64,000 nucleotides of DNA, taken from assembly GCA_025403435.1 (NCBI GenBank), contig JAJQZP010000046.1, forward strand, positions 62,001 through 126,000, read 5' to 3'. Below the pieces are notes generated by a model. That model saw only the letters and a program-made list of their open reading frames with translations, was not told the DNA's origin and searched no databases. The DNA is from Artocarpus heterophyllus. Taxonomy: Eukaryota; Streptophyta; Magnoliopsida; Rosales; Moraceae. Shown piece by piece: positions 10,041 through 46,225 of the stretch. The position numbers were made by a program, and so were the translations under genes. The first letter of the stretch is position 1, and every line of letters starts with the position of its first letter.

Positions 10041-10113
10041 TACATACATACATACATATATATATATATATACACACGTATGTATATATGTGACGTATGT
10101 ATATATATGTGAC
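10041..10113. repeat. ATAC/AT/TG microsatellite
   Basis: Runs of ACAT and AT are followed by two GTATGTATATA blocks. The corresponding place in block A (about 1411-1441) has only a short version, so the expansion came after duplication. Confidence 0.8.
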
Positions 10114-10419
10114 TTTGGTTTCTCATTAAGCCAACTGTTTTTTTGGCACCAACTTGAGAAGAAAAAAAATAGGATTAATTATTTTGGCACGTATCAGAAC
10201 TACTTCAAAACGATATTGCATTTTCCATTATCATTACAACAGAGATTAATTTCTTGTTTGGTACAAAAATACAGCCTTTGTTGATAAGACGAAACACCTA
10301 AAACCCCCTACTATGGCTGGCCTACGTCTTAACATGTAGAGTAAATGTACAAACAATAATCTCTCTGTGATGATTTGGTTTTGAAAAAAAAAAAGTATTT
10401 TATTTAATTGTTTTAGTTT

Positions 10420-10424
10420 GTTTA
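10420..10424. other. Empty target site matching solo LTR copy 1
   Basis: GTTTA occurs once here within TTTAGTTTGTTTATGGTGAGAA. In block A the same context is split by the solo LTR, with GTTTA on both sides. The undisturbed paralogue confirms the LTR borders and the 5-bp target duplication. Confidence 0.9.
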
Positions 10425-12865: not shown

Positions 12866-13871
12866 GTAAAGCTCCACATGTTATAGTAAAAAGGAAAAAG
12901 TTGCTACAGTGTAAAGCTCTTACATGCTACAGTGTTTACAGTTCTAATCAATGGTACTACTCACTATGCCAAATGCTCTTTATTGTCAAATTATGAACCA
13001 AGAGCCGGACCCCTTTTTTGCCCAAAGCTTGACCACTTGTTTGCTTGAAGAGTATAGTTCAAGCATATTGACTGGCCTTGATTTTGCTTTTGCAAGAAGA
13101 GATGTATCCTTTAAGGTGAATTTGCGCTTCGAGATGCAAAGGAAAAATGCCATTATAAGAAGCTTTTGAGTTTTGGGTTTGGAGAGATCTAAAGCCAACA
13201 AAATAGCTAGTATGTCAAAAAAGTGTGAGAAGTAAATGGGCTTGCCAATGAACAACAAAATATGAACCGTGCCACAAAGTTATACGAAATGAAAGCAAAG
13301 CCGTAGGTAGTAACAGCTCTCACATGGCGTTTCACTCTCCATTACCCGCTTATGATGGACTTTTGGACCACTTCATGGTCATTTTTAGGCCACTCAACCC
13401 CTATATTTTGTGTGTGCATGGAGAATGTGCTAATTCTTCTTCTTCTTTTATTTCTTTGGCCGATCAAATTTTTGTACATTAATATTCTGCTATAAATATC
13501 CAATTAGCAAAAACTAAGCCAATACAAGGGAACGTAGATAGGTAATATAAGTATTATTTGAGATATCATATCCATTTTATCTCTCTGTAATAGATAATCA
13601 CTCATGCATTGAATGGCCTTCCTATTATTGTGGAAGCCAAATAAAACATTTGCAAATATCATATACCATAACCATATTCAATATGTCAAAATAAGAAAGA
13701 AAGAGAGAGACATAAGATGGTTGATTGAAAAATCAATCAAATACCAAAGAGCCCCACAACTTAAATAAGATTAAAATTTGGACTAACTTGGGGTCGAGCC
13801 AGAGGCTATGCTTTCTCAAGCCAATGGTTCGAGCCCAAATCAAAAAACAGCTACAATGGTTCCCAATCTCA
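12866..13871. other. Spacer downstream of PG1beta gene A
   Basis: No gene seen. From about 13472 the sequence aligns with 33058-33505 downstream of gene B, so the tandem duplication included 3' flanking DNA. Small ORFs on both strands at 12951-13258 overlap and look like chance. Confidence 0.55.
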
Positions 13872-17185: not shown

Positions 17186-18603
17186 TCTTCATGTTGAATC
17201 ATTGAGAATCAATAATTTTCTATATATGATTCTCATTAAATATTCTCAAATTTAACAATCTATGGTTTTATAAAATTGTTGAATTTGAGAACAATTGTTT
17301 AAATTTCTGGTTGAAAACAATCTACAGTTTCCTAATTCTTGCCGAGAGAACAAAAAAAGGAAAAATAAAAACGTTATTAACGTTTTGCTTAGGTTATGTT
17401 ATATACATGTATTCGGTTGAATCGTTTTGCTTGTATATATGCATATATATATATATATATATGTTTTTTTTTTTGGACCCGAGTTGTATAAGGAAAGTCG
17501 ACGGCATCATTACCGTCGCCGACGAAGCACCCCGTGCGCGACTGTGAGGCTGCGTCGAAAAGACAGCAGGCCGCGGCGGAGCAAGAAAGCAGCGGCCACA
17601 GAGGTCACCGCATAAAAAAAAAATAAAATTGAAAGGGCTTTCGCCGGCGGCTGGCCCCGTGACTGCCGGCGTCGGCCGTGTCTGGGCGCGACCACCAAGT
17701 CGCACCGGAGTAGAGAAGCTGCGGCCAGATACAGGGGCGGCGGCCGTTGGCCAACCGTCATCTTCACCCAGAGTAGGGCTGCTTGGGGAAAGGTCTGGGC
17801 TTCGGCCCAGACCTGAAGTTTTACACGGGCCCGAGCGGGCTCGTGATCAGACGGAACCCAGGGTCTCAACCCCTGGGTTACCGCAAAAAAAAGAAAAAAA
17901 AAAGGGATACACGGGCCGGGCTCGTGACTGGACATTCATACACGGGCTGGGCCCGTGACCGGTAAGTCCCCAGGGGTTCAACCCCTAGGTGACCCAAAAA
18001 AAAAAAAAAAAGAAATAAAGGGTGCTGGTTTAGGATCCAAGTAGGGTTCTCCCGACCCTGTCAATGTTGACCTTGACCAAATTTTTTTTTATTTTTTTTA
18101 TTTTTTATTTTTTAATTTTGGTCATTTTTGGTGCAATTTTAAATTCAAATATTGGTATTTTATATATATTTTGAGATGAATTAATTGAAGCAACATGTCA
18201 CCAAAGTGGCATCTCTTGTGGAAATTAATTTGTTTTGAAATATAAAAGGTTGTGTTTATGTAACTTATGTGAATATTGACCGGCCCAAAGGAAGGCAATA
18301 TTTGACAGAATTACATGTACACCTGTGGTGATAAACACGTGATGATTATTCGGCTTTATATGTAAGCAATAAATCAGCCCAAAGAAAGATTTATTGTTTG
18401 ACATGTTCTTATTGTTAGTGTTTGATTACTACACCAAGATATCACTTACAAGTTAATATTTCTGTCCAAAGACTAAATATTAATGGAGTGCTCGATATCT
18501 TGAGATGGGGTTACCTTTATTTGGATTTATTATTGTTATTATGGATTCTTATGTGAGCTTGTTTTGGTTTTGTTTATTTTGTTATCTGTTTCAGCTACTA
18601 GTT
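17186..18603 (+). other. Untranslated leader of the copia element
   Basis: This leader of about 1.4 kb has a GC-rich island at 17475-17995 with imperfect internal repeats: ACACGGGCC/CTGGGCCCGTGACC variants near 17822-17845, 17910-17932 and 17940-17962, and CAACCCCTGGGTTA/CAACCCCTAGGTGA near 17868 and 17979. ORFs on both strands overlap there and reflect base composition. A TGTTTCAG acceptor-like site lies at 18587-18594. Confidence 0.6.
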
Positions 18604-18641
18604 ATGCCTCTAATATTACTGCCAACATCAATTCAATTCCT

Positions 18642-19679
18642 ATGCTGAATGGTAGCAACTTCAAATCATGGCAAGAGAACCTCCTAATAGTTCTCGGAGT
18701 CATGGATCTCGACCTTGCGTTAAGGGTTCCTTCTCCTGCACCTCTTACAGATAAAAGTTCCTCTGATCAAAAGAAGGACATGGAAAGGTGGGAGAAGTCA
18801 AATCGCATGTGTATGATGATCATAAAGAAGGCGATTTCAGAAACATTCAGGGGCACTATATCGGAAACGATAAAGACAGCCAAAGAATTCCTTGAGGACA
18901 TTGAGAAGAGATTTGCCAAAATTGAAAAGGCTGAAACAAGTACACTTTTGGCAAACCTCATCTCAATGAGATACAAAAGTAAGGGGAACATTAGGGAGTA
19001 CATCATGGAGATGTATCATATTGCTTCAAAATTAAGAGCACTTAAGCTTGACCTTTCTGAGGACTTGTTAGTGCATTTAGTTCTTATATCTCTTCCTGCA
19101 CACTTCGGTCAGTTTAAGGTGAGCTATAATTGCCAAAAGGAGACTTGGTCTCTTAATGAGCTCATCTCACATTGTGTACAAGAAGAGGAAAGGCTGAAGC
19201 AAGAAAAGACAAAAAGTGCTCACTTGGCTAATACTTCCAAGGACAAAGGGAAGAAAAGGAAGAAGGATAAGGAAGCTGCAGTTACAGCACCTCAAAAGAA
19301 GCAACAAAAGAGACCGGTTGATCCAGAATATACGGGTTGTTTCTTCTGTGGAGCTACAGGACATAAGAAGAAGCATTGCACCAATTATCAAGCTTGGCGT
19401 GCTAGAAAAGGTATGCTTCTTAATTTGGTTTGTTCTGAGGTTAATTTAACTTCGGTACCTGAACACACTTGGTGGATGGATTCTAGTGCAACCACTCACA
19501 TTAGTGTGTCTATGCAGGGATGCCTGAGATGCCGAAAGCCAACTGATGGTGAAAGATACATCTACGTGGGCGATGGCAAGAAAGTTGAAGTTGAAGCAAT
19601 AGGAAAATTTAGATTATTGTTAAAGACTGGATGGATCTTGATGAAACATTTATTGTACCGTCTTTTAGACGGAATTTGA
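18642..19679 (+). pseudogene. copia gag and protease region
   Basis: From the first in-frame ATG (MLNGSNFKSWQ) this encodes a UBN2-type capsid, a CCHC zinc knuckle CFFCGATGHKKKHC (about 19339-19380) and a protease start with DSSATTHIS, where the usual glycine of DSGA is serine. An ATG at 18604, where the family start is expected, is one base out of frame, suggesting a deletion just behind it. Near 19620-19630 the frame shifts and the product would run to a false stop. Confidence 0.85.
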
Positions 19680-20623
19680 TTTCTATTTTAGCTTTGGACA
19701 AATCTGGTTATTCTTGTTCATTTGGAAATGGAAAATTTAGTTTGTTTCATGATTCAAAATTAGTTGGTTCCGGTTCTTTATCAGGTTACGATAATCTTTA
19801 TTTACTTGATACAATTGCTTCATTTAATGAATCCTTGCAATTAAGTACACGAGGTACAAAGAGAAAATTAACCAATGAGAATTCAGCTGCGTTATGGCAC
19901 AAGAGATTGGGTCATATCTTCAGAAGGAGAATAGGGCGACTTGTGTCAGACGAAATTCTCGACCCCTTAGACTTTACAGATTTTGATATTTGTGTTAACT
20001 GTATTAAGGGGAAACAAACCAATAAAAGGAGATTTGAAGCCAATAGGACTTTGGACGTCTTAAAACTTATACATACAGACATTTGTGGGCCATTCCCTAC
20101 GGCTTCTTGGAATGGTCAACAATATTTTATAACGTTCATAGACGATTTTTCCAGATATGGCTACATATATCTCATTCATGAAAAGTCACAGTCGCTGGAT
20201 GTGTTCAAAAATTATAAGGCTGAAGTTGAAAATCAACTCAGCAAAAGGATTAAAAGCGTCAGATCTGACCGTGGTGGTGAATACTATGGTAGATATGACG
20301 GTTCAGGTGAACAACGTCTGGGACCGTTTGCTAAGTTCCTAGAGGAAAGCGGTATCGTCCCACAGTACACTATGCCGGGTTCACCCACTATGAATGGTGT
20401 TACTGAAAGACGAAACAGAACGCTTAAGGACATGGTGAGGAGTATGATTTCTCATTCTGCCTTACCAGAATCACTCTGGGGAGAAGCACTTAAGACTGCA
20501 GCGTATATCCTTAATAGGGTTCCAACTAAAGCAACTACCAAAACCCCTTACGAACTTTGGACGGGCAAGAAGCCTAGTCTAAAGCATTTGCATGTTTGGG
20601 GATATCCAGCTGAGGCAAGGCCT
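19631..20623 (+). pseudogene. copia integrase region, cut by the nested element
   Basis: Starting in a shifted frame at [16 protein letters not shown], it has the GAG-pre-integrase HHCC zinc finger (WHKRLGH and CVNC) and an integrase core with all three acidic residues visible in [15 protein letters not shown] and GVTERRNRT. It is cut after AEARP by the element at 20624. The reading resumes at 29470 with YRPNEKKLDS. Confidence 0.88.
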
Positions 20624-22916
20624 TGTGACACCCGTTATTCTCCTAACGGGTATTGAGGTAATTAAATTAATTTTTAGTGTATAAAAAAAAAAATTGCTTC
20701 ATTTAAATTTATTTTATAATATTTATTTTTATCTATTTTTAAATTTTCTAAAATTCTCCTATATTTATTTAGTATGATTACTAAAAAGCCTTAGAACTTC
20801 TAATAAATCTCAAAAATGTCATATTGGCATTATGTGTGTTAAAGTCTTTAGATGAGACATAAGGATATCTTTTCCAACTACTCTTGACCCTCATTTTCTT
20901 TATTTCCTCCGTGACATGCTTCAACATGTCTCCTCTATAATTGTTTCTATCACTTCTCTTCAAAGACTTCATCTTTTCTTCCTTTCTCTTCCACGGTTCC
21001 CACACTCTTCTTCTCATTTCTTTGCTAAAGCAAAATACTTAGAGAACTTCTTCAAGGCAGCCATAAAAATCAGCTACCATCACCTCCATTTGAGCAAGAA
21101 TTTCAGTCATACCGAAGTAAAGGAACCTGTTTTGAAGCCATTTCAAGCTTCCAACTAACCATAATCCGAGGTTAGAATCTTATGAACAAATTTAGTCTTT
21201 CATTTATAAATTTTCTTTTATACTAAAGGATTATTCAAATTTGCGTTCTTAAACCTAAGTATATGTTTGTTGCTATTTTGGAGCATATGTATGAAGTCTA
21301 AGTGTATATGCCCTAGACAGAAAATTTATATTGTTAAACTTTGTAATACCTCTATGGGCAGTGGTTATTTCTTGAAATTCTAAGATTAAATTAAAATGAA
21401 TTTTATGAATTGGTTTGCATATTTGAAAAGTAGCATCCTAGGCTTTCTAACGAGCTATCATAAACCTAAATCGGAGTTGTATTTTATTTTCTAAGAATTA
21501 TTTAATTTTTGTATTGGAAACTAGTAAATCTGCCAGTTTGTTATGGTATACCAGCTGCTAACCTGAACCAAGAACCCATCTTTGCTCACCACCTAATTCT
21601 TTAATGTCTTGCAACCTTTCCAATATTATCCTAAGTGATTGATGAATCTTATTAGGGACTAAAACATATAGATTACTTGTTCACATTTTATATTGTGTTA
21701 AGACAAAAATTGTTTACTGTGGTATTCGAAAGAGATTTATATAAAAGCTTTAATGGCATACTAGTAAGATAGGTTTACACATGATTTATTTATGAATGTA
21801 GTTGTATGTTGTGCTTTAGTTTTAATTGTCCTTATGCACGCCTTAGGATCAAGGGAGTATGGAGCTAACGTTAACTGATTCCAGGATTAAAAGATTGTTG
21901 ATAAGCTTGAAAGGTAGGGATTCTATTACTCATCTTTTGTGAGGTTTTGGTAAATTAAATTTGATTGTTTTATATTGTAAAATATGTATATTGTATAGCG
22001 ATAAATATAATGATTTGACATATGTTATAAATTGAGAAGCATGGTTAGGAAATTGACTCTATAAATATAAATTGAATACAAAGGAATAGTGAGATGTAAA
22101 AAGGGCGACGGTTACGTCCTTGGGCACGAATACCCTAAAAGGAAAAATAGGGGGAAGGTGATGACGCTTCCTTGGGTTGAAAGTCCCAGAACACACTGTA
22201 CAGGAATCGATTTGGTGAGGACTCGGGGCTTGATGTCCCCTCACCGGAACACCCTTGGAATGTTTATAGGGTGATCAAGTGCGCCCATTTGGGTTTCGAT
22301 GAGTTGAGTGATACTCAATTTAACATGGATACCTAGGAACAATGATGATTGGTAATATTTGTATAAATGTGTAATTATGACACTTGGTAATGATTAACTA
22401 CGGTATCCATAAGATGTGATCATAATAAACCTCATAATCTGAAATATGATGTGACTTACTAACCATGCAGATTTTAATGTGGTAATGATAGAGGTGAGTA
22501 ATGGCTTTCTCTACTGAGCATAGTGTTGCTCATTCCCTTATGTTTATATCTTTTCAGGACTCACTAAGTGTAAGGTGGCTACGAGAAATATAGTTGAGGA
22601 AGTGATGTAGCTATATTACATTGGAACTGCTTCAATCGTTGAGAATGTTCTTCATGATAATGTAAGCATCAATTGTTACTTTCTGTGACTGTATTACAAT
22701 GTGTTGAGGGTTAAAATGATGATGACAACAGTTTATATTATTAAATTTAAGGTGCTACATTTAAAACTGTGGTTTATTTATCGTTTATATTTTTATTTTT
22801 GAGTTGAGAGTTTTCATTTAAGTCCCGGGCAAATTTTATTTTTAAGGTTTTACTTTTATTATTTATTTTTATTTTATCTCATTAAAAACTGTTAACCCCC
22901 ATATAGGGGCGTTACA
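20624..22916 (+). repeat. 5' LTR, young element copy 1
   Basis: 2293 bp, TG to CA. It keeps an approximately 390-bp segment (about 21415-21800) that is missing from copy 2's LTRs. Small ORFs here recur in all four LTRs and are not genes. Confidence 0.95.
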
Positions 22917-22923
22917 GAATTTT

Positions 22924-22936
22924 TGGTATCAGAGCC
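22924..22936 (+). promoter_or_regulatory. Primer binding site, young element copy 1
   Basis: TGGTATCAGAGCC, complementary to the 3' end of initiator-Met tRNA, 7 bases after the LTR. Confidence 0.93.
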
Positions 22937-24405
22937 TAGGTTCGGTTAACCTAGGGAGTGTAGCACCACTTTAAAAAATATATTTTTGAGATGGTTTTGA
23001 AGCTGAATTTTCATTGTCATCATCAAAATGAACCTTCACATTGATTTATACAGTCTAGAAGGATGTAACATGGAAAGGCCATAGAATGAAAATATCAATA
23101 GTTATATGAGTACAATAATTACATAGAAGGAAAGTATTAATAGTTATGAGGGAATGATAATTATATGGAATGAGTTTATAAGTAGAATGCTTATGAGAGA
23201 TTCGTATAATATTTGGATCTATAAGCATATTTAATTCGTATAAACGATGAGAAATTTGTATAGATACGAGGATTTAAGAGCCTTTTGTCTCGTGAAAGAC
23301 AATAAGAAATATAAGGCTTGACTTATTGATTTTAAAGTTTGACATAGATATGCCAAATTTTTCGTAATTGATTCAAACCTAAGTAATGATTATGTGTGGA
23401 TTCGATGGAGCACATAAGTGTCAATGTCTTTTCTTAAAAGTTCTATATATTTGAGGAATATGATATAAGTTGGGAATCATGGTGTTGAATTTTGAGAGAG
23501 ATAAATGTTAGACTTTTGGTCTATTGAGACTGTGTAAAGTCTAGAATGCATGAATCTCAAAATTGGAATATTTTGTTACGTACATTGTATTTAAGTGTAT
23601 CAGTGAATCTTTTGGTTACCTAAGGTTTTGTTATATGAGGAAATTATATATTGTATAAGTAGAATTGTGGGGATTGTAGATGATCTTAAGTAGTAACATC
23701 TAGTGTCTTTGCTCATTGATATGGTCTATGTTGGAAGACGTAAATCGTATTGATTTCAAGGTTAGTCGCATTCTAAACCCTTGGTAGTAATGATGATGAA
23801 TCCATTGATAGATGTTAAGTATTATGAATAACATATGGGTGTATGTATTGTTCAATAAGGTTTTGATTAAAACAAAATTATTCTAGTTGCTGGAAGATTA
23901 TGTTGTTATGAAATGATTTTAAATATCATTCAGGAAGATCCTTGTTGTCGTTAAATTAGATTTGTTGTTCATAATTAACTTTATCTATAGTGGGCTTTGA
24001 ATTGGGTTTAAGATTCATACGAATTGGTTTTCAATTTTATGTTTGTTATTTAACTTGTTCTAAATGTGTTAAGGCCCGAAACAACCTGACCATTTTCAAC
24101 TTAGAACATTTGGGCCTAGTTCAAATCTTAAATCAGTTTGATTCACACTGTCTCTCCCACGTGGTCTCTATACGTGTCATATACAGTGGTTTAATTATTG
24201 TTTACATATACGTTTACTGTGCGTAAGACCTTATTTCTCCAAGTTCACTTTTTCTCTCTTAATTTGTTATTTTTTTCTCTAAATCGCAAATCCTCTTCTT
24301 TTTCATTAGAAATTCTTCTTTTCCTCCAAAAGAAGAAGGAATTCTAGGATTCTGCAATTTACTATCTTAATTTTTCATTTCTATTTACTCTTCTTTCATC
24401 TCATC
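22937..24405 (+). other. Internal leader of the young element, copy 1
   Basis: No gag remnant or long ORF. Its last 250 bp look like a plant promoter and 5' UTR: a CACGTG G-box at 24158-24163, then a C/T-rich stretch (24230-24400) up to the ORF1 start. The same layout is kept in copy 2. This could be an internal promoter brought in with ORF1. Confidence 0.55.
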
Positions 24406-24927
24406 ATGGACCCAAAGTACCAACACCTGAGAAAGTATTTCCCATCACTCTCCCAAAAGATTCTCAGAAAGAAATACAAGGCTAGAATTACTCGATTGTG
24501 GATTCTTATGCGTTTTGGTATCCCTTGTGATGTGAGAATGTTAATAGAGGGGAAAATCCGTCCGAGTGACTTTAGTCAAGATGTCGGTTTACCAGGAACG
24601 GGTACCAGTCGTAGTGCAATGAAAAGAAGAGCTCGTGCCATCGTGGTCACTTGTAACAAATGTGGAAGACAAAATTGTAACGGTAAATGTACTTCACCTG
24701 GTTATATGTCTACGAATAGAGAGGATAAAATAAGGTTTTGTAGGGATGGACTTTCAAAGGAGAACTTGGATAGCATCCATCCTCCTCTCCACGGTCACCC
24801 TAGTGGATATGTTCAAGGAGCTATTTTTAAACTCTGGCCTAAATTTTATACAGAAAGACAACGCCTCAGGAATATGGTATTTCTAGATCCTGTTTGTCAA
24901 GCCATAAGAAAACTGGATGGGGAATAA
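24406..24927 (+). CDS. Young-element ORF1: basic Cys-cluster protein, NABP-like (copy 1)
   Basis: 173 aa, no intron. The ATG context is strong (A at -3, G at +4). Seen in order: a Lys/Arg-rich N-terminus (21-30), LMRFGIP (34-40), SRSAMKRRARA (68-78), a Cys cluster C83-x2-C86-x4-C91-x3-C95, PGYMSTN (98-104), and a Trp/aromatic C-terminal part (140-165). The run of hydrophobic helix, arginine-rich patch, Cys cluster and PG-x-(I/M)S-x-N resembles the cysteine-rich nucleic-acid-binding proteins of carla-, viti- and allexiviruses, which are RNA-silencing suppressors; those are shorter (about 100-130 aa). This is an inference from motif order, not a database match. Alternatives are a derived gag nucleocapsid (but this is not CCHC) or an unknown plant protein. 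Copy 2 differs at two residues. Confidence 0.72.
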   Translation: MDPKYQHLRKYFPSLSQKILRKKYKARITRLWILMRFGIPCDVRMLIEGKIRPSDFSQDVGLPGTGTSRSAMKRRARAIVVTCNKCGRQNCNGKCTSPGYMSTNREDKIRFCRDGLSKENLDSIHPPLHGHPSGYVQGAIFKLWPKFYTERQRLRNMVFLDPVCQAIRKLDGE

Positions 24928-25521
24928 GTCATCGCTCTATAAAGGTTATTTAGTCTTTACTTATTTGAAGCAGTTTTAGCTGATGTTCAACAGTTTGTGT
25001 TTTTTCTTTTACTCAGAATATTTACTTTTGTGTTTGAAATAATTGTGATTATTAGATTGATACAGTAAGTGTTAATATCTTATTTAATTTATGATTTTCT
25101 TAAATAAAATATATTATCTTATCAGACACGTTACATACGGTACAGTAATATGTTTGAATTTTGAAAAGCTTATCCAGATATTTCAAGATTTGTGTCTCAA
25201 ATTTCAAAAGTTCTACAGTATTTGTCGTTTATATTAAATTTTTAGACTTGGTGTATATTTGTCAAAAAGTCTACAGTTGTGTCATGAGGGTCTTCTGTCG
25301 AATTGTTCTCAATTGTCAAAAGTTATACAATTAGAGTCTAATCTTTTTCAAAAAGCGAATCAGATTTTCTGTAAACTATCAATCACCTTATCTTACTTTC
25401 TTATCCGCACAAGATTTTGTTTAAATCTTTGGATTACCTTTTCATTACCTACTCGTCTATCTCTTTAGCCCTTTTTGTATATTTCTCATCTTTAAAAACT
25501 TATGTAGAAACCGAAGTCTAA
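24928..25521 (+). other. Gap between ORF1 and ORF2 of the young element
   Basis: 594 bp, AT-rich. A 69-codon open stretch (25259-25468) has a non-ATG start and no recognisable motif. The gap implies separate mRNAs, splicing, or internal initiation if ORF2 is expressed. Confidence 0.5.
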
Positions 25522-26211
25522 GTGGAGCAGACATTAAGCAACCACTTCTATAAACCAAATATGTCTACCTCCCAGTCCACGAAGAAAATAAAGAATGTCT
25601 GTGTCTTTTGTGGTTCCAGCCTTGGAAAAGATAAAGCTTATTTAGAAGCTGCAAATCACTTAGGGCAAGTCCTAGCACGCAAGAAGATTAACATAATCTA
25701 TGGGGGTGGTAGTATAAAAATGATGGTAAATATGGCACTAGCAGCTAGGTCTAGCGACGCTACTGATGTAAGAATTTGGCCTCATATTCCAGTTGAAGGA
25801 AACCTTTGTAAGGAAGCCATAGGTAAGGGAGAAGGAGTCAGGAGTATCCCTAGAAATTTTAAAGACATAATCTATAATTCTGATGCTTTTATAGCATTAC
25901 CTGGTGGTCTAGGTACTCTTGAGGAAATATTTATAGTTGCTTGTGGGCAATTGTTGGGCTTTTATTCCAAACCTTTGGGACTGCTGAATGTAAAGGGTTT
26001 TTATGACGGTCTTTTGAAATTTCTAGATTACGCTGTGGAAGAAAACATCACTACAGAATCGGAGAGACAAATCTTTGTCACTGCTTCAACAGCTGAGGAA
26101 TTGATAGATAAAATGCAAATCATACATCCAGAATCCGACACTGCAACATCCAAGCTTGAATGGGAAAGGGAAAGCCGGGGGCGGCCAATTGATTTGAATC
26201 TCCATCTGTAA
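25522..26211 (+). CDS. Young-element ORF2: LOG-type cytokinin riboside phosphoribohydrolase homologue (copy 1)
   Basis: 229 aa, uninterrupted. A second ATG at 25561 (residue 14) may be the real start, since LOG homology begins soon after at VCVFCGSS (26-33). The Rossmann core follows: IIYGGGS (58-64), DAFIALPGGLGTLEE (121-135) with the PGGxGTxxE signature, KPLGLLNVKGFYDGLL (150-165), then SKLEWE near the end. LOG enzymes release active cytokinin bases from nucleotide precursors in the cytosol. Odd points: the usual GLMG after GGG is KMMV, the MHQRKAEM helix is replaced by IPRNFKDI, and the tail ends in LNLHL, an EAR-like LxLxL. Plant LOG genes normally have several introns, so an intronless copy points to capture of spliced RNA. 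Activity is uncertain. Confidence 0.88.
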   Translation: MEQTLSNHFYKPNMSTSQSTKKIKNVCVFCGSSLGKDKAYLEAANHLGQVLARKKINIIYGGGSIKMMVNMALAARSSDATDVRIWPHIPVEGNLCKEAIGKGEGVRSIPRNFKDIIYNSDAFIALPGGLGTLEEIFIVACGQLLGFYSKPLGLLNVKGFYDGLLKFLDYAVEENITTESERQIFVTASTAEELIDKMQIIHPESDTATSKLEWERESRGRPIDLNLHL

Positions 26212-27158
26212 TCTTTTTGTTTTATCTTTGGCATGTAGGCATGTGTGTCCGTATTTCGTGTGTTACGAATAACCGTTTGCCTTGTATTCTGTGTTTCTTG
26301 TGGTACGTCGTTGTTCAATCTTTTAGATTCATTGAGCCTAATGCCGGGATGGTTGGATACGGAGTACTTGATGCTCTCGAAACGCATCCTTCTTAAGGTC
26401 CGATCTTTTGTTTATCGATGTTTTTGTATCCTCTAAGCATGCATGATATGGATAGCTGGTATACGGAGTGCCTTGTACTCTCGAAACGTATCCGTATTAT
26501 GTTTGTAATGTGTAATATTCTGTTAATATTATGTGGAAGTACCAGAGTCAGTTATGGGGATATTCCATATGAAATATGAGTATATTATTTGGATTGAATG
26601 TTTGTGTCATGAGGATAGCTGTTTAATGAAAAATATGCCGGGTATGTTTGCAACTCTGAGATTCCGTTTAATATCTCTATGAGTAAGTTTAATGTATGGT
26701 TTTGAATATAAGTGTTTGTGATATATGTTTTATGATTATGTTTTAGTTTATTAGTTGAGGTATGAAATCAAATATATTTGACTTTTCCTTACTCAAAAAG
26801 GAAAAGGAACCTAAAGATGAAGTATATAAAATTTCTCTGGCAATCTCCTTAAATGTGATTGTAAATCACAGTCCATGGACAATGAAGGACCGGAATCATG
26901 ATATGGTCAATATGTATGCCTGATCAGATTCTTAGACTATTATACGGTGTTACAAGTTGAAACTTGTCAGAAATACTCTCATTGAGGGATTTAGAATTTA
27001 GAGTAAGATTTATTATGCAAGTAAATAAGTGGAGTTACGATAACTTAAATTTGGAGGACAAAGAACATTAACGGTTTAGACTCAGAATTGGAATCATAGT
27101 GGAATCATAATTTTTACTAGTATTACTAGAATTGAAATTTCGAGGACGAAATTTCTTT
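26212..27158 (+). other. 3' internal region of the young element, copy 1
   Basis: No gene seen. Two related segments that could fold as hairpins, GGATACGGAGT...GCTCTCGAAACGCATCC (about 26355-26392) and TATACGGAGTGCCTTGTACT plus CTCGAAACGTATCC (about 26460-26492), lie about 105 bp apart; copy 2 has both. Confidence 0.5.
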
Positions 27159-27170
27159 AAGGGGGGTAGA
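27159..27170 (+). promoter_or_regulatory. Polypurine tract, young element copy 1
   Basis: AAGGGGGGTAGA two bases before the 3' LTR; it primes plus-strand synthesis. Confidence 0.9.
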
Positions 27171-27172
27171 GC

Positions 27173-29464
27173 TGTGACACCCGTTATTCTCCTAACGGGT
27201 ATTGAGGTAATTAAATTAATTTTTAGTGTATAAAAAAAAAATTGCTTCATTTAAATTTATTTTATAATATTTATTTTTATCTATTTTTAAATTTTCTAAA
27301 ATTCTCCTATATTTATTTAGTATGATTACTAAAAAGCCTTAGAACTTCTAATAAATCTCAAAAATGTCATATTGGCATTATGTGTGTTAAAGTCTTTAGA
27401 TGAGACATAAGGATATCTTTTCCAACTACTCTTGACCCTCATTTTCTTTATTTCCTCCGTGACATGCTTCAACATGTCTCCTCTATAATTGTTTCTATCA
27501 CTTCTCTTCAAAGACTTCATCTTTTCTTCCTTTCTCTTCCACGGTTCCCACACTCTTCTTCTCATTTCTTTGCTAAAGCAAAATACTTAGAGAACTTCTT
27601 CAAGGCAGCCATAAAAATCAGCTACCATCACCTCCATTTGAGCAAGAATTTCAGTCATACCGAAGTAAAGGAACCTGTTTTGAAGCCATTTCAAGCTTCC
27701 AACTAACCATAATCCGAGGTTAGAATCTTATGAACAAATTTAGTCTTTCATTTATAAATTTTCTTTTATACTAAAGGATTATTCAAATTTGCGTTCTTAA
27801 ACCTAAGTATATGTTTGTTGCTATTTTGGAGCATATGTATGAAGTCTAAGTGTATATGCCCTAGACAGAAAATTTATATTGTTAAACTTTGTAATACCTC
27901 TATGGGCAGTGGTTATTTCTTGAAATTCTAAGATTAAATTAAAATGAATTTTATGAATTGGTTTGCATATTTGAAAAGTAGCATCCTAGGCTTTCTAACG
28001 AGCTATCATAAACCTAAATCGGAGTTGTATTTTATTTTCTAAGAATTATTTAATTTTTGTATTGGAAACTAGTAAATCTGCCAGTTTGTTATGGTATACC
28101 AGCTGCTAACCTGAACCAAGAACCCATCTTTGCTCACCACCTAATTCTTTAATGTCTTGCAACCTTTCCAATATTATCCTAAGTGATTGATGAATCTTAT
28201 TAGGGACTAAAACATATAGATTACTTGTTCACATTTTATATTGTGTTAAGACAAAAATTGTTTACTGTGGTATTCGAAAGAGATTTATATAAAAGCTTTA
28301 ATGGCATACTAGTAAGATAGGTTTACACATGATTTATTTATGAATGTAGTTGTATGTTGTGCTTTAGTTTTAATTGTCCTTATGCACGCCTTAGGATCAA
28401 GGGAGTATGGAGCTAACGTTAACTGATTCCAGGATTAAAAGATTGTTGATAAGCTTGAAAGGTAGGGATTCTATTACTCATCTTTTGTGAGGTTTTGGTA
28501 AATTAAATTTGATTGTTTTATATTGTAAAATATGTATATTGTATAGCGATAAATATAATGATTTGACATATGTTATAAATTGAGAAGCATGGTTAGGAAA
28601 TTGACTCTATAAATATAAATTGAATACAAAGGAATAGTGAGATGTAAAAAGGGCGACGGTTACGTCCTTGGGCACGAATACCCTAAAAGGAAAAATAGGG
28701 GGAAGGTGATGACGCTTCCTTGGGTTGAAAGTCCCAGAACACACTGTACAGGAATCGATTTGGTGAGGACTCGGGGCTTGATGTCCCCTCACCGGAACAC
28801 CCTTGGAATGTTTATAGGGTGATCAAGTGCGCCCATTTGGGTTTCGATGAGTTGAGTGATACTCAATTTAACATGGATACCTAGGAACAATGATGATTGG
28901 TAATATTTGTATAAATGTGTAATTATGACACTTGGTAATGATTAACTACGGTATCCATAAGATGTGATCATAATAAACCTCATAATCTGAAATATGATGT
29001 GACTTACTAACCATGCAGATTTTAATGTGGTAATGATAGAGGTGAGTAATGGCTTTCTCTACTGAGCATAGTGTTGCTCATTCCCTTATGTTTATATCTT
29101 TTCAGGACTCACTAAGTGTAAGGTGGCTACGAGAAATATAGTTGAGGAAGTGATGTAGCTATATTACATTGGAACTGCTTCAATCGTTGAGAATGTTCTT
29201 CATGATAATGTAAGCATCAATTGTTACTTTCTGTGACTGTATTACAATGTGTTGAGGGTTAAAATGATGATGACAACAGTTTATATTATTAAATTTAAGG
29301 TGCTACATTTAAAACTGTGGTTTATTTATCGTTTATATTTTTATTTTTGAGTTGAGAGTTTTCATTTAAGTCCCGGGCAAATTTTATTTTTAAGGTTTTA
29401 CTTTTATTATTTATTTTTATTTTATCTCATTAAAAACTGTTAACCCCCATATAGGGGCGTTACA
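27173..29464 (+). repeat. 3' LTR, young element copy 1
   Basis: 2292 bp; same as the 5' LTR except for one A fewer in the run near 27231. Confidence 0.95.
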
Positions 29465-29469
29465 GGCCT

Positions 29470-31493
29470 TATAGGCCTAATGAAAAGAAACTGGACTCAA
29501 GGACGGTTAGTTGTTATTTTATTGGATACTCTGAAAGATCCAGGGGGTACAAGTTTTATGATCCCACGACAAATCGATATTTGAGACGGGAAATGCCAGG
29601 TTCTTTGAGGATGTCGAGTTCGCGGGGGGAGATATGGTTAGGGACTTTGTCTTCGAAGAGGAATATGTTGATATTCCCACAGCTGTTATTGACATTGATC
29701 AAGTTTCTACTCCTGACATTGTTCAAGAAGCAGACCCAAATCAAGACAATGTCGGAGAACCTCCTATTCCTGAAATTGTTCCAGAAGAACAAACTCAACC
29801 ACCTCAAGAACCTATGCCATTAAGGAGATCCACTAGAGAAAGGAGAAGTGCGGTGCCAGATGATTACATTGTATTTCTCCAAGAACATGAGTATGACATT
29901 GGTATGGTGGAAAATGATCCAATCAACTTCCGTCAAGCCATGGAAAGTTCTAGATCTCAAGAGTGGATTGATGCCATGAATGAAGAGATAAAGTCTATGA
30001 AAGACAATGACATTTGGGATCTTGTCCCATTGCTTGAAGGTGCGAAACCCGATGGTTGCAAATGGATATTTAAGACCAAAAAGGATTCGAAAGGCAATGT
30101 GGAGAGGTATAAGGCTCGTCTTGTCGCTAAAGGCTTTACACAGAAAGAAGGCATTGATCATAAAGAGACTTTCTCTCCGGTTTCTTCGAAAGACTCTTTT
30201 AGGATTATAATGGCATTAGTGGCACATTTTGATCTTGAGCTTTATCAGATGGATGTTAAGACTGCGTTCCTCAATGGTGACATTGATGAAACAATCTATA
30301 TGGTGCAACCGGAAAACTTTGTGTCAGGAGATGCAAAGAAGATGGTTTACAAATTAAAGAAATCTATCTATGGGCTCAAGCAAGCTTCTCGTCAATGGTA
30401 TTATAAATTTCATCAGGTTATCATCTCGTTTGGTTTTGAGATGAATTTGGTCGATGATTGTATATACCACAAGTTCAGTGGGAGTAAGTATGTTTTTCTA
30501 GTTTTATATGTCGATGACATTTTGCTTGCCAGCAACGATATAGGCTTGTTGCACGAAACCAAGAGATTTCTATCAAAGAAATTTGAGATGAAGCATCTTG
30601 GTGACGCCTCTTTTGTGTTGGGTATACAGATACACCGGGATCGCTCTTGGGGTATTTTAAGATTATCACAAAAAGGCTATATCGAAAAGATTCTTCAGAG
30701 ATATAGCATGCAGGACTGTAAACCAGGTGATACCCCTGTGGCTAAGGGAGACAAGTTTAGTCTCAATCAGTGCCCTAAGAATGATTTTGAGGTTAAAGAA
30801 ATGCAGAAGATTCCTTATGCGTCAGTAGTAGGGAGTCTAATGTATGCTCAGATTTGTACGCGTCCGGATATTGCGTATGTTATAGGGATGTTGGGCAGGT
30901 ACTTAAGCAATCCTGGAAAGGATCACTAGGTAGTAGCCAAACGAGTCTTGAGGTATTTTCAGAGAACAAAGGATTACATGCTCACGTATCGGAGGTCAGA
31001 ACAGCTTGAGATCATTGGGTATACTGACTCTGATTTTGCTGGATGCTCAGATAGTATGAAATCTACATCGGGCTATGTCTACCTTCTGGCTGGAGGTGCT
31101 GTCTCTTGGAAGAGTGCTAAACAGTCTCTTATAGCATCTTCTACAATGGCGGCAGAGTTCATAGCGTGTTATGAGGCATCAAATCATGGAATATGGCTGC
31201 AAAATTTTGTCACGAGGCTGCGTATAGTGGACAGTATTTAAAGACCACTCAAGATATTTTGTGACAATAAGTCAGCAGTTTTGTATTCCAACAACAACAG
31301 GAGCTCGACGAAGTCAAAGCATATAGAGATCAAGTTCCTAGTTGTGAAAGAAAGAGTTCAGAGTGGACAGTTGTCTATAGAGCACATCGACACAAGCTCC
31401 ATGATTGCGGATCCGCTTACTAAGGGATTGTCACCCAAAATGTTTCATGAGCACACTGCTCGTATGAGTGTCATATCATTTCAAGATATTTAG
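29470..31493 (+). pseudogene. copia reverse transcriptase and RNase H region
   Basis: Continues the integrase-side frame (YRPNEKKLDSRTVSCYFIGY), then shifts by one base near 29565-29575 into the main frame (KSIFETGNARFFEDVEF). RT motifs YQMDVKTAFLNGDIDE and LVLYVDDILLAS are present, so the YVDD catalytic site is kept. TAG at 30927-30929 and TAA at 31239-31241 interrupt an otherwise readable RNase H (GYTDSDFAGC, IFCDNKSAV, KHIEIK). The natural end is TAG at 31491-31493. Confidence 0.9.
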
Positions 31494-38029: not shown

Positions 38030-38034
38030 GGCCA

Positions 38035-40000
38035 TGTGACACCCGTTATTCTCCTAACGGGTATTGAGGTAATTAAATTAATTTTTAATGTATAAAAAAA
38101 ATTGCTTCATTTAAATTTATTTTATAATATTTATTTTTATCTATTTTTAAATTTTCTAAAATTCTCCTATATTTATTTAGTATGATTACTAAAAAGCCTT
38201 AGAACTTCTAATAAATCTCAAAAATGTCATATTGGCATTATATGTGTTAAAGTCTTTAGATGAGACATAAGGATATCTTTTCCAACTACTCTTGACCCTC
38301 ATTTTCTTTATTTCCTCCGTGACATGCTTCAACATGTCTCCTCTATAATTGTTTTTATCACTTCTCTTCAAAGACTTCATCTTTTCTTCCTTTCTCTTCC
38401 ACGGTTCCCACACTCTTCTTCTTATTTCTTTGCTGAAGCAAAATACTTAGAGAACTTCTTCAAGGCAGCCATAAAAATCAGCCACCATCACCTCCATTTG
38501 AGCAAGAATTTCAGTCATTCCGAAGTAAAGGAACCTGTTTTGAAGCCATTTCAAGCTTCCAACTAACCATAATCCGAGGTTAGAATCTTATGAACAAATT
38601 TAGTCTTTCATTTATAAATTTTCTTTTATACTAAAGGATTATTCAAATTTGCGTTCTTAAACCTAAGTATATGTTTGTTGCTATTTTGGAGCATATGTAT
38701 GAAGTCTAAGTGTATATGCCCTAGACAGAAAATTTATATTGTTAAACTTTGTAATACCTCTATGGGCAGTGGTTATTTCTTGAAATTCTAAGATTAAATT
38801 AAAATAAATTTTATGAATGTAGTTGTATGTTGTGCTTTAGTTTTAATTGTCCTTATGCACGCCTTAGGATCAAGGGAGTATGGAGCTAACGTTAATTGAT
38901 TCCAGGATTAAGAGACTGTTGATAAGCTTAAAAGGTAGGGATTCTATTACTCATCTTTTGTGAGGTTTTTATAGAATTAAAATTGATTGTTTTGCCGCAA
39001 TATATATATATCTATGTTGAACTGATATTATATGTGTATCACATATGAAACTATGACATGGACTCGTCTTGTATTGTACGGCGAGGAACATAATGAATTG
39101 ACACATGTTATAAATTGAGAAGCATGGTTAGGAAAATTAACTCTATTAATAATGATTTAATATAGAGAAATTGTGAGACATGAAAAGGGCGACGGTTACG
39201 TCCTTGGGCATGAATACCCTAAAAGGTAAAGTAGGGGGAAGGCGATGACGCTTCCTTGGGTTGAAAGTCCCAGAACACACTGTACAGGAATCGATTTGGT
39301 GAGGACTCGGGGCTTGATGTCCCCTCACCGGAACACCCTTGGAATGTTTATAGGGTGATCAAGTGCGCCCATTTGGGTTTCGATGAGTTGAGTGATACTC
39401 AATTTAACATGGATACCTAGGAACAATGATGATTGGTAATATTTGTATAAATGTGTAATTATGACACTTGGTAATGATTAACTACGGTATCCATAAGATG
39501 TGATCATAATAAACCTCATAATCTGGAATATGATGTAACTTACTAACCATGCAGATTTTAATGTGGTAATGATAGAGGTGAGTAATGGCTTTCTCTACTG
39601 AGCATAGTGTTGCTCATTCCCTTATGTTTATATCTTTTCAGGACTCACTAAGTGTGAGGTGGCTACGAGAAATATAGTTGAGGAAGCGATGTAACTATAT
39701 TACATTGGGACTGCTCAATTGTAAAGAATGTTCTTCATGATAATGTAAGCATCAATTGTTACTTTCTGTGACTGTAATTATAATGTGTTGAGGGTTAAAA
39801 TGATGATGACAACAGTTTATATTATTAAATTTAAGGTGCTACATTAAAACTGTGGTTTATTTGTCGTTTATATTTTTATTTTTGAGTTGAGAGTTTTCAT
39901 TTAAGTCCCGGGTAAATTTTAATTTTTAAGGTTTTACTTTTATTATTTATTTTTATTTTATCTCATTAAAAACTGTTAACCCCCATATAGGGGCGTTACA
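38035..40000 (+). repeat. 5' LTR, young element copy 2
   Basis: 1966 bp, TGTGACACCCG to GGGGCGTTACA. Confidence 0.95.
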
Positions 40001-41488: not shown

Positions 41489-42010
41489 ATGGACCCAAAG
41501 TACCAACACCTGAGAAAGTATTTCCCATCACTCTCCCAAAAGATTCTCAGAAAGAAATACAAGGCTAGAATTACTCGGTTGTGGATTCTTATGCGTTTTG
41601 GTATCCCTTGTGATGTGAGAATGTTAATAGAGGGGAAAATCCGTCCGAGTGACTTTAGTCAAGATGTCGGTTTACCAGGAACAGGTACCAGTCGTAGTGC
41701 AATGAAAAGAAGAGCTCGTGCCATCGTGGTCGCTTGTAACAAATGTGGAAGACAAAATTGTAACGGTAAATGTACTTCACCTGGTTATATGTCTACGAAT
41801 AGAGAGGATAAAATAAGGTTTTGTAGGAATGGACTTTCAAAGGAGAACTTGGATAGTATCCATCCTCCTCTCCACGGTCACCCTAGTGGATATGTTCAAG
41901 GAGCTATTTTTAAACTCTGGCCTAAATTTTATACAGAAAGACAACGCCTCAGGAATATGGTATTTCTAGATCCTGTTTGTCAAGCCATAAGAAAACTGGA
42001 TGGGGAATAA
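41489..42010 (+). CDS. Young-element ORF1: basic Cys-cluster protein, NABP-like (copy 2)
   Basis: 173 aa, differing from copy 1 only by Thr to Ala at residue 82, next to the Cys cluster, and Asp to Asn at 114. I count three silent changes in addition. All four clustered cysteines, the KRRAR patch and the LMRFGIP segment are kept. Function is inferred as for copy 1. Confidence 0.72.
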   Translation: MDPKYQHLRKYFPSLSQKILRKKYKARITRLWILMRFGIPCDVRMLIEGKIRPSDFSQDVGLPGTGTSRSAMKRRARAIVVACNKCGRQNCNGKCTSPGYMSTNREDKIRFCRNGLSKENLDSIHPPLHGHPSGYVQGAIFKLWPKFYTERQRLRNMVFLDPVCQAIRKLDGE

Positions 42011-42614: not shown

Positions 42615-43304
42615 GTGGAGCAGACATTAAGCAACCACTTCTATAAACCAAATATGTCTACCTCCCAGTCCACGAAGAAAATAAAGAATGTCTGTGTCTT
42701 TTGTGGTTCCAGCTTTGGAAAAGATAAAGCTTATTTAGAAGCTGCAAATCACTTAGGGCAAGTCCTAGCACGCAAGAAGATTAACATAATCTATGGGGGT
42801 GGTAGTATAAAAATGATGGTAAATATGGCACTAGCAACTAGGTCTAGCGACGCTACTGATGTAAGAATTTGGCCTCATATTCCAGTTGAAGGAAACCTTT
42901 GTAAGGAAGCCATAGGTAAGGGAGAAGGAGTCAGGAGTATCCCTAAAAATTTTAAAGACATAATCTTCAATTCTGATGCTTTTATAGCATTACCTGGTGG
43001 TCTAGGTACTCTTGAGGAAATATTTATAGTTGCTTGTGGGCAATTGTTGGGCTTTTATTCCAAACCTTTGGGACTGCTGAACGTAAAGGGTTTTTATGAC
43101 GGTCTTTTGAAATTTCTAGATTACGCTGTGGAAGAAAACATCACTACAGAATCGGAGAGACAAATCTTTGTCACTGCTTCAACAGCTGAGGAATTGATAG
43201 ATAAAATGCAAATCATACATCCAGAATCCGACACTGCAACATCCAAGCTTGAATGGGAAAGGGAAAGCCGGGAGCGGCCAATTGATTTGAATCTCCATCT
43301 GTAA
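42615..43304 (+). CDS. Young-element ORF2: LOG-type cytokinin riboside phosphoribohydrolase homologue (copy 2)
   Basis: 229 aa, five residues different from copy 1: Leu34Phe, Ala75Thr, Arg111Lys, Tyr118Phe, Gly220Glu. PGGLGTLEE and the LNLHL tail are kept. Arg111, the nearest candidate for the catalytic arginine of the LOG family in copy 1, is Lys here. Changes between the copies are mostly non-synonymous, so there is no sign of purifying selection since they split, though the numbers are tiny. Confidence 0.88.
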   Translation: MEQTLSNHFYKPNMSTSQSTKKIKNVCVFCGSSFGKDKAYLEAANHLGQVLARKKINIIYGGGSIKMMVNMALATRSSDATDVRIWPHIPVEGNLCKEAIGKGEGVRSIPKNFKDIIFNSDAFIALPGGLGTLEEIFIVACGQLLGFYSKPLGLLNVKGFYDGLLKFLDYAVEENITTESERQIFVTASTAEELIDKMQIIHPESDTATSKLEWERESRERPIDLNLHL

Positions 43305-44259: not shown

Positions 44260-46225
44260 TGTGACACCCGTTATTCTCCTAACGGGTATTGAGGTAATTA
44301 AATTAATTTTTAATGTATAAAAAAAATTGCTTCATTTAAATTTATTTTATAATATTTATTTTTATCTATTTTTAAATTTTCTAAAATTCTCCTATATTTA
44401 TTTAGTATGATTACTAAAAAGCCTTAGAACTTCTAATAAATCTCAAAAATGTCATATTGGCATTATATGTGTTAAAGTCTTTAGATGAGACATAAGGATA
44501 TCTTTTCCAACTACTCTTGACCCTCATTTTCTTTATTTCCTCCGTGACATGCTTCAACATGTCTCCTCTATAATTGTTTTTATCACTTCTCTTCAAAGAC
44601 TTCATCTTTTCTTCCTTTCTCTTCCACGGTTCCCACACTCTTCTTCTTATTTCTTTGCTGAAGCAAAATACTTAGAGAACTTCTTCAAGGCAGCCATAAA
44701 AATCAGCCACCATCACCTCCATTTGAGCAAGAATTTCAGTCATTCCGAAGTAAAGGAACCTGTTTTGAAGCCATTTCAAGCTTCCAACTAACCATAATCC
44801 GAGGTTAGAATCTTATGAACAAATTTAGTCTTTCATTTATAAATTTTCTTTTATACTAAAGGATTATTCAAATTTGCGTTCTTAAACCTAAGTATATGTT
44901 TGTTGCTATTTTGGAGCATATGTATGAAGTCTAAGTGTATATGCCCTAGACAGAAAATTTATATTGTTAAACTTTGTAATACCTCTATGGGCAGTGGTTA
45001 TTTCTTGAAATTCTAAGATTAAATTAAAATAAATTTTATGAATGTAGTTGTATGTTGTGCTTTAGTTTTAATTGTCCTTATGCACGCCTTAGGATCAAGG
45101 GAGTATGGAGCTAACGTTAATTGATTCCAGGATTAAGAGACTGTTGATAAGCTTAAAAGGTAGGGATTCTATTACTCATCTTTTGTGAGGTTTTTATAGA
45201 ATTAAAATTGATTGTTTTGCCGCAATATATATATATCTATGTTGAACTGATATTATATGTGTATCACATATGAAACTATGACATGGACTCGTCTTGTATT
45301 GTACGGCGAGGAACATAATGAATTGACACATGTTATAAATTGAGAAGCATGGTTAGGAAAATTAACTCTATTAATAATGATTTAATATAGAGAAATTGTG
45401 AGACATGAAAAGGGCGACGGTTACGTCCTTGGGCATGAATACCCTAAAAGGTAAAGTAGGGGGAAGGCGATGACGCTTCCTTGGGTTGAAAGTCCCAGAA
45501 CACACTGTACAGGAATCGATTTGGTGAGGACTCGGGGCTTGATGTCCCCTCACCGGAACACCCTTGGAATGTTTATAGGGTGATCAAGTGCGCCCATTTG
45601 GGTTTCGATGAGTTGAGTGATACTCAATTTAACATGGATACCTAGGAACAATGATGATTGGTAATATTTGTATAAATGTGTAATTATGACACTTGGTAAT
45701 GATTAACTACGGTATCCATAAGATGTGATCATAATAAACCTCATAATCTGGAATATGATGTAACTTACTAACCATGCAGATTTTAATGTGGTAATGATAG
45801 AGGTGAGTAATGGCTTTCTCTACTGAGCATAGTGTTGCTCATTCCCTTATGTTTATATCTTTTCAGGACTCACTAAGTGTGAGGTGGCTACGAGAAATAT
45901 AGTTGAGGAAGCGATGTAACTATATTACATTGGGACTGCTCAATTGTAAAGAATGTTCTTCATGATAATGTAAGCATCAATTGTTACTTTCTGTGACTGT
46001 AATTATAATGTGTTGAGGGTTAAAATGATGATGACAACAGTTTATATTATTAAATTTAAGGTGCTACATTAAAACTGTGGTTTATTTGTCGTTTATATTT
46101 TTATTTTTGAGTTGAGAGTTTTCATTTAAGTCCCGGGTAAATTTTAATTTTTAAGGTTTTACTTTTATTATTTATTTTTATTTTATCTCATTAAAAACTG
46201 TTAACCCCCATATAGGGGCGTTACA
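44260..46225 (+). repeat. 3' LTR, young element copy 2
   Basis: 1966 bp, with no difference from the 5' LTR noticed by eye. Confidence 0.95.

What the first reader, a model, noticed from the sequence alone, without database searches (positions are those of the whole stretch)
20624..29464. LTR retrotransposon family whose only ORFs are a LOG-like cytokinin gene and an NABP-like gene
Seen: complete LTRs, primer site, polypurine tract, target duplications, no gag or pol, and two sense ORFs kept open in two independent insertions (20624-29464 and 38035-46225). Known: LARD-type elements usually carry no genes, and captured host genes in plant LTR elements are usually fragments. Inference: a non-autonomous element that replaced gag-pol with a near full-length hormone-activation gene and a second gene, spread by an autonomous Tekay/Del-like partner. 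Active cytokinin in meristems could help an element reach the germ line.
Basis: partly seen in the sequence, partly recalled or inferred. Interest (0 to 1): 0.93.

Follow-up and report, generated by a model that had tools for sequence, protein, structure and literature searches.

The report
Jumping element carrying two odd genes
About three thousand copies of a plant jumping element have no copying machinery of their own and carry instead a gene resembling a plant-virus silencing suppressor and a hormone-enzyme look-alike that seems to have lost its enzyme site, which suggests a parasite that borrows machinery and spends its coding space on steering the host.

Summary
Two LTR elements (20624-29464, 38035-46225) have intact ends, primer site, polypurine tract, 5-bp target duplications, no gag-pol and two open sense ORFs. 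Genome-wide, markers for polypurine tract/3' LTR, ORF1 start and ORF2 core occur 3064, 3225 and 3069 times. Of 12 systematic picks 11 could be judged: all 11 carry both ORFs, 10 have both open. A gag-protease-RT element with the same LTR-end/primer-site junction exists, the likely helper. ORF1 belongs to a large plant protein family matching the NABP zinc-finger family of carla-like RNA viruses and is under purifying selection. ORF2 is a LOG-family protein, but the proposed catalytic Arg is Asn in all 34 gap-free copies read, the GLMG loop is changed, and a C-terminal LxLxL (EAR-type) tail is invariant. Active cytokinin is therefore unlikely for this family; one divergent relative in the same genome keeps the Arg. 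LOG domains in Ty3/gypsy elements were already reported (Citrus, Populus; PMC9289625). New here: an RT-less, high-copy element made of two conserved non-replicative genes. Function of both proteins is inferred; ORF2 shows no amino-acid constraint among recent copies.

The parts
20619..20623 (.). target-site duplication GGCCT (partner copy at 29465-29469)
20624..22916 (+). 5' LTR of element 1 (2293 bp, TGTGACACC...GCGTTACA)
22924..22936 (+). primer-binding site TGGTATCAGAGCC (initiator-Met tRNA type, assignment recalled)
   Evidence: the LTR-end/PBS 35-mer occurs 3929 times in the genome
24406..24927 (+). ORF1, 173 aa, NABP-like C4 zinc-finger protein with basic stretch
   Evidence: open in 33 of 35 copies
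24652..24690 (+). C-x2-C-x4-C-x3-C motif of ORF1
25561..26211 (+). ORF2, 216 aa, LOG-family protein (probable pseudoenzyme)
   Evidence: open in 34 of 35 copies
25855..25857 (+). Asn codon at the position of the proposed catalytic Arg of LOG
26188..26208 (+). C-terminal IDLNLHL, LxLxL (EAR-type) motif
27159..27166 (+). polypurine tract AAGGGGGG
27173..29464 (+). 3' LTR of element 1
29465..29469 (.). target-site duplication GGCCT
38030..38034 (.). target-site duplication GGCCA of element 2 (partner at 46226-46230)
38035..40000 (+). 5' LTR of element 2 (1966 bp)
41489..42010 (+). ORF1 of element 2
42654..43304 (+). ORF2 of element 2 (from ATG)
44260..46225 (+). 3' LTR of element 2

Best explanation
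A high-copy, recently active non-autonomous LTR retrotransposon family of a plant genome. Shown: LTRs, primer site, PPT, TSDs, near-identical LTRs, about 3000 genome copies of each ORF marker, no gag-pol in the copies read through, and a gag-protease-RT element with the same LTR-end/primer-site junction. Inferred: its LTR transcript is packaged, reverse transcribed and integrated by proteins of that Ty3/gypsy relative. Its coding space holds two trans-acting proteins: ORF1, a basic C4 zinc-finger protein related to carlavirus-type nucleic-acid-binding proteins, most likely protecting or activating element RNA/DNA (silencing suppression or transcriptional activation), and ORF2, a LOG-type pseudoenzyme that no longer releases cytokinin and acts through its LxLxL tail, most likely by binding TOPLESS-type corepressors.
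For: Both LTRs recovered in 21 of 22 copies, interiors 4217-4269 bp, TSD matched in 20 of those 21; markers 3064/3225/3069, controls 0; 11 of 11 judged systematic picks (12 taken) carry both ORFs, 10 with both open; gag-pol relative with identical 35-base junction and related LTR end. ORF1: variants seen in more than one copy 14 synonymous to 5 nonsynonymous, p=9e-5; all variants 22 to 25, pN/pS 0.50, p=0.009; 104 of 118 family members match Viral_NABP and 103 Carla_C4 at E<=0.01; the first 7 of 9 weak structural hits among viral proteins are from flexiviruses (families recalled), 6 of them named nucleic-acid-binding protein or silencing suppressor. ORF2: Asn for Arg and LxLxL tail both invariant in 34 of 34 gap-free copies; LxLxL in 95 of 107 full-length sequences (92 of 104 without this element's own three) versus 8.5% of shuffled tails. 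Gap runs: 1 in ORF1, 0 in ORF2, against 17 and 11 in the 5' and 3' interior.
Against: ORF2 shows no amino-acid constraint among the copies read (15 synonymous, 33 nonsynonymous variants, pN/pS 0.99, p=0.50), so its protein may no longer matter. Young copies would often be open without selection. The window ORF1 itself scores below both Pfam cut-offs (16.3 of 23 and 13 of 20.9 bits); no viral structural hit reaches E<=0.001 and no PDB hit was found. The inter-ORF stretch is about as conserved as the ORFs. No expression, protein or mobilisation data. One helper element was seen, over 2.5 kb of interior only.
Confidence: 0.5

Rival explanations
1. ORF2 is still an active LOG and the element boosts cytokinin in meristems to enter the germ line.
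For: LOG domain and PGGLGTLEE motif kept; a divergent ORF1+ORF2 pair in the genome keeps the Arg.
Against: Asn replaces the proposed catalytic Arg in 34 of 34 gap-free copies; G53, L54 and G56 of the GLMG loop, found in 115, 119 and 100 of 119 relatives, are K, M, V in window ORF2. In CgLOG, alanine in place of active-site residues gave almost complete loss of activity, S19A excepted (PMC4979012, passages; Asn itself was not tested in what I read). ORF2 is on a long branch, 1.5 changes per column, place in the tree unresolved.
Confidence: 0.07
2. The ORFs are passengers: only cis signals matter, and ORFs look intact because the copies are young.
For: 9 of 21 elements have no LTR substitution (best-matching copies); ORF2 pN/pS 0.99.
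Against: ORF1 is under significant purifying selection; both ORFs diverge less (0.86, 0.57%) than the 5' and 3' interior (2.67, 1.63%), though the inter-ORF stretch is also low (0.95%); full-length relatives of both proteins exist in other eudicots at 40-60% identity.
Confidence: 0.25
3. ORF1 and ORF2 are nested host genes or insertions that happen to be copied along.
For: Each ATG follows a pyrimidine-rich leader-like stretch (by eye).
Against: Same place and order in the 35 copies whose ORF region was read, marker counts equal to element 3' ends, and a diverged pair in the same order elsewhere.
Confidence: 0.03
4. ORF2 and the inter-ORF stretch matter as RNA (packaging or translation signal), not as protein.
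For: Low divergence of ORF2 with pN/pS near 1, and of the 633-bp inter-ORF stretch.
Against: A 216-codon frame with LOG domain and tail was kept over a long branch, which a pure RNA role does not explain.
Confidence: 0.12

Closest known systems
Ty3/gypsy elements with a YgdH (LOG) domain in Citrus sinensis, C. clementina and Populus trichocarpa (PMC9289625, passages and section 12 read; it cites Steinbauerova 2011, not held)
   Same: LOG-family domain inside a Ty3/gypsy LTR element; possibly the same wider clade (Populus LOG relatives).
   Different: That screen used reverse transcriptase as marker, so its elements have RT; the NABP-like ORF is not named in the section read; here RT, gag and integrase are absent.
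LARD-type non-autonomous LTR retrotransposons (recalled)
   Same: LTRs, PBS, PPT, TSD, no gag-pol, presumed mobilisation in trans.
   Different: LARDs lack coding capacity; here two ORFs are carried by the copies read.
[quoted passage not shown]
   Same: Extra sense genes conserved in most copies of a family.
   Different: There the extra ORFs accompany gag-pol; here they are all that is left.
Carlavirus/allexivirus/mandarivirus NABP (CRP) silencing suppressors (PMC12172455, passages)
   Same: ORF1 family matches PF05515/PF01623; four-Cys motif next to a basic stretch.
   Different: Encoded in plant genomes; motif C-x2-C-x4-C-x3-C and a long conserved C-terminal half; activity untested.
LOG cytokinin-releasing enzymes (AtLOG3, PDB 2a33)
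   Same: Same family by sequence (E 9e-44 to 2a33), PGGXGTXXE motif.
   Different: Catalytic Arg and GLMG loop lost, LxLxL tail present.

Membership tests
Non-autonomous LTR retrotransposon | two LTRs, PBS, PPT, TSD, many dispersed copies | tested here: met
   TSD matched in 20 of 21 judged elements (22 examined)
Non-autonomous LTR retrotransposon | no gag or pol of its own | tested here: met
   for element 1; same-size, homologous interiors of about 4.2 kb in 21 copies
Non-autonomous LTR retrotransposon | mobilised in trans by a related gag-pol element | tested here: inconclusive
   one candidate with identical LTR-end/PBS junction and gag, PR, RT; transposition not testable
LARD | non-coding interior | tested here: not met
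   two ORFs, ORF1 under selection
LOG enzyme | PGGXGTXXE motif and LOG/Lysine_decarbox domain | tested here: met
LOG enzyme | catalytic Arg | tested here: not met
   Asn in 34 of 34 gap-free copies; Arg in 111 of 119 relatives
LOG enzyme | releases free cytokinin from the nucleotide | not testable with these tools
   needs enzyme assay
Viral NABP / Carla_C4 family | Pfam gathering score | tested here: not met
   window ORF1 16.3 bits vs 23 and 13 vs 20.9
Viral NABP / Carla_C4 family | homology through relatives | tested here: met
   104 and 103 of 118 aligned family members match at E<=0.01
Viral NABP / Carla_C4 family | silencing suppression or nucleic-acid binding | not testable with these tools
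   needs assay
EAR-motif repressor | LxLxL motif | tested here: met
   invariant IDLNLHL; definition from PMC10942257 (passages)
EAR-motif repressor | binds TOPLESS | not testable with these tools
   needs interaction assay
Tekay/Del chromovirus | chromodomain and RT phylogeny of the helper | not tested
   only 2.5 kb of the helper interior was read; the Tekay label rests on recalled look of PPT and PBS

The most novel reading that the evidence does not exclude
A two-part transposon system in which the replicative genes and the host-manipulating genes sit on separate, cooperating elements: a gag-pol element supplies copying, and the RT-less partner supplies, for both, a virus-type silencing suppressor (ORF1) and an EAR-tailed LOG pseudoenzyme that redirects corepressors (ORF2). 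NABP genes would then be shared between plant RNA viruses and retrotransposons.
Probability: 0.2. Interest if true: 0.88.

Novelty: new variant of a known kind. Interest (0 to 1): 0.72.

Why it matters
Non-autonomous elements are normally seen as empty passengers. A family of about 3000 copies that kept only two non-replicative genes, one selected and virus-like, makes it testable whether such elements pay their way with trans-acting anti-silencing or corepressor-binding proteins. It also links the NABP family of plant RNA viruses to a large family of plant genome-encoded genes, mobile at least here, raising the question of which way the gene moved.

Tried and rejected
Splicing around ORF1: a donor-like site in window element 1 is kept in 5 of 22 copies only, so rejected. 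gag-pol remnants in the interior: none in ten frames scanned. Relatives in IMG/VR: no confirmed hit for the ORF1 or ORF2 alignment. PDB fold search with the ORF1 model: no hit; PDB sequence search with ORF1: nothing convincing (best E 0.038). The first, shallow ORF1 model was poor (pLDDT 52.6) and not searched. Profile comparison of ORF1 with ORF2: unrelated. Papers: carlavirus/NABP with retrotransposon terms gave 0 papers; a broader search listed 25 of 2004 and a Pfam-name search 17 of 18, none joining NABP to plant elements by title or abstract start; LONELY GUY with LTR terms gave only PMC9289625 as a prior report of LOG in LTR elements, as far as titles and abstracts show. The library lacks most subscription papers. 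Host species was not identified. Physical linkage of ORF1 and ORF2 relatives in other plants could not be checked; shared genera (Populus, Xanthoceras) are only suggestive. The family search PF03641 in the genome did not complete.
Full report
What is there. Element 1 spans 20624-29464 and element 2 38035-46225. LTRs of element 1 show no substitution and one indel, those of element 2 are identical; TSDs are GGCCT and GGCCA. A TGGTATCAGAGCC primer site follows the 5' LTR and AAGGGGGG precedes the 3' LTR. The interior of about 4.26 kb holds two sense ORFs; ten of the longer other interior frames gave no Pfam match. Element 1 is itself inserted into a Ty1/copia element (gag at 18564, integrase frame to 20656, RT from 29634). 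The 229-aa ORF2 of the mechanical list starts at GTG; the ATG at 25561 gives 216 aa, the length of the 99% identical public protein P0020.

How common. The window lies in a 985-Mb assembly of 334 contigs. Markers with up to 3 mismatches occur 3064 times (PPT/3' LTR start), 3225 times (ORF1 start), 3069 times (ORF2 core) and 3929 times (5' LTR end/primer site); reversed-pattern controls gave 0 each time. If full length, about 3000 copies of about 8.2 kb are roughly 2.5% of the genome (estimate). I fetched 22 further copies from the 40 scored DNA matches (of 2373 candidates): 20, 2. Of 22 copies examined (window 2 + the first 20), both LTRs were recovered in 21, with interiors of 4217-4269 bp, LTR identity 98.04-100%, no LTR substitution in 9, and matching TSDs in 20. 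Because those were best matches, I also took every ninth of the 100 listed PPT junctions, 12 in all (contigs C1-C3, exact marker matches), reading about 2.9 kb upstream of each, so not the 5' third of the interior: 11 could be judged and all 11 carry both ORFs; 10 have both open, one (L036) has both broken by gaps. In all, ORF1 is open in 33 of 35 and ORF2 in 34 of 35 copies (L033 left out as unreadable). L045, chosen because its ORF markers were missing from the printed lists, has an early stop in ORF1 and is not in that count.

Selection. In 22 copies the ORFs diverge by 0.86% (ORF1) and 0.57% (ORF2) per pair, the 5' interior by 2.67%, the 3' interior by 1.63%, and the inter-ORF stretch by 0.95%; distinct gap runs number 1 and 0 in the ORFs against 17 and 11 in the 5' and 3' interior and 3 between the ORFs. 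On 33 and 34 gap-free copies, ORF1 variants are 22 synonymous to 25 nonsynonymous (pN/pS 0.50, p=0.009), and those seen in more than one copy 14 to 5 (p=9e-5). ORF2 variants are 15 to 33 (pN/pS 0.99, p=0.50), so no amino-acid constraint is visible in the recent burst. Earlier, smaller sets of best-matching copies gave dN/dS-type values of 0.17 and 0.44 (pairwise) and pN/pS 0.35 (p=0.006) and 0.64 (p=0.16); the larger set is to be preferred. The tests treat variants as independent.

ORF1. 15 close relatives and, with a profile, 856 proteins at E<=1, of which 120 were listed; the named ones are from Populus, Xanthoceras, Acer, Hibiscus, Rhamnella and Orobanche. 104 of 118 aligned family members match Viral_NABP and 103 Carla_C4 at E<=0.01, though the window protein is under the cut-off. 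A four-Cys motif of total length 13 is found in 103 of 126 sequences. A model from 118 sequences (pLDDT 73, pTM 0.35) has nine viral structural hits, none at E<=0.001; the first seven come from flexiviruses (families recalled), six of them named nucleic-acid-binding protein or silencing suppressor and one only '15kDa protein'. Viral relatives act as silencing suppressors and pathogenicity factors (PMC12172455, passages).

ORF2. It is a LOG-family protein (Pfam PF03641 E 1.5e-21; PDB 2a33 E 9e-44). CgLOG work names Arg99 and Glu122 as proposed catalytic residues, and alanine at active-site residues, S19A excepted, gave almost complete loss of activity (PMC4979012, passages). ORF2 has Asn at the Arg in 34 of 34 gap-free copies; of 119 relatives 111 have Arg. 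Its GLMG loop reads KMMV in the window copy. PGGLGTLEE is kept. The tail IDLNLHL is invariant in the 34; LxLxL occurs in the last 25 residues of 95 of 107 full-length sequences (92 of 104 without this element's own three) against 8.5% of shuffled tails, and not in the five Solanaceae LOGs of the same list. LxLxL is an EAR type that binds TOPLESS (PMC10942257, passages). In the tree ORF2 is on a branch of 1.5 changes per column and its place is unresolved.

Kin in the same genome. P0012 (ORF1 family) against the genome: 150 scored of 5312 candidates, 51-54% identical, 149 without a stop other than one TAA, which fits the end of ORF1. P0026 (Populus LOG with tail) finds 150 scored of 5879 candidates in single unspliced stretches, 46-56% identical, roughly two thirds without a stop, some matching only to residue 198; part of them belong to this family. 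One hit of each list lies side by side on contig C17 (ORF1-like 24140594-24141115, LOG-like 24139196-24139828, same strand, same order). A short piece of that LOG frame reads ISNRLENM at the active site, so the Arg is kept, whereas a copy on C1 next to an ORF1 marker reads IPKNFKDI. So the two-gene arrangement seems older than this burst, and loss of the Arg seems to have preceded the amplification (inference from one relative; whether the C17 pair lies in an LTR element was not checked).

Helper. At one place with an identical LTR-end/primer-site junction (L044) the interior is 84% identical for about 106 bp and then encodes pieces of gag (PF03732), aspartic protease (PF08284) and RT (PF00078) in separate frames; whether that copy is intact was not examined. 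Its LTR end is related (local pieces at 83-93%, 86.7% over 487 aligned columns). It is one of three places read because ORF markers were missing from the lists; of the other two, L045 is a family copy and L043 unreadable. The excess of primer-site junctions over ORF markers (3929 against 3069-3225) is compatible with several hundred such elements or with truncated copies; not resolved. Mobilisation in trans is inferred.

Reading. The family works like other non-autonomous LTR elements but is not an empty one. ORF1, selected and virus-like, is the best candidate for a protein that helps the element in trans. ORF2 is most likely a scaffold or corepressor-binding pseudoenzyme; the absence of constraint among recent copies leaves open that it is now dispensable. 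The cytokinin idea is unlikely for this family but remains possible for Arg-bearing relatives.

Prior knowledge. LOG (YgdH) domains in RT-bearing Ty3/gypsy elements of Citrus and Populus are on record (PMC9289625, section 12 read). That screen used RT as marker and would miss elements like this. I found no paper joining NABP-like genes to plant LTR elements in the searches named under Tried and rejected.

Noticed in passing
window 13872-15695, 33506-35335, 53815-55266, 59060-60908 (minus strand): Related frames (about 78-90% alike at DNA level), two of which were scanned and hit the BURP domain, look like a local gene cluster.
   Followed up: no
window 18564-30929: Element 1 is nested in a Ty1/copia element, interrupting it near the end of its integrase frame.
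   Followed up: partly
G000 genome, one search list: 150 scored unspliced LOG-like frames of several identity classes, roughly two thirds without a stop, some matching only to residue 198 of the Populus query, suggest further LOG-bearing element families besides this one.
   Followed up: partly
window 20624-22916 (about LTR positions 788-1165): Element 1 LTRs hold about 380 bp that most of the copies read lack; LTR length is polymorphic (1903-2404 bp).
   Followed up: no
window 24928-25560: The inter-ORF stretch is nearly as conserved among copies as the ORFs (0.95% per pair), which hints at a promoter, RNA or translation signal for ORF2.
   Followed up: no
window 55-6214 and 8648-12869; 1718-3870 and 61359-63507: Long diverged repeats (about 86-94% identical) elsewhere in the window.
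   Followed up: no
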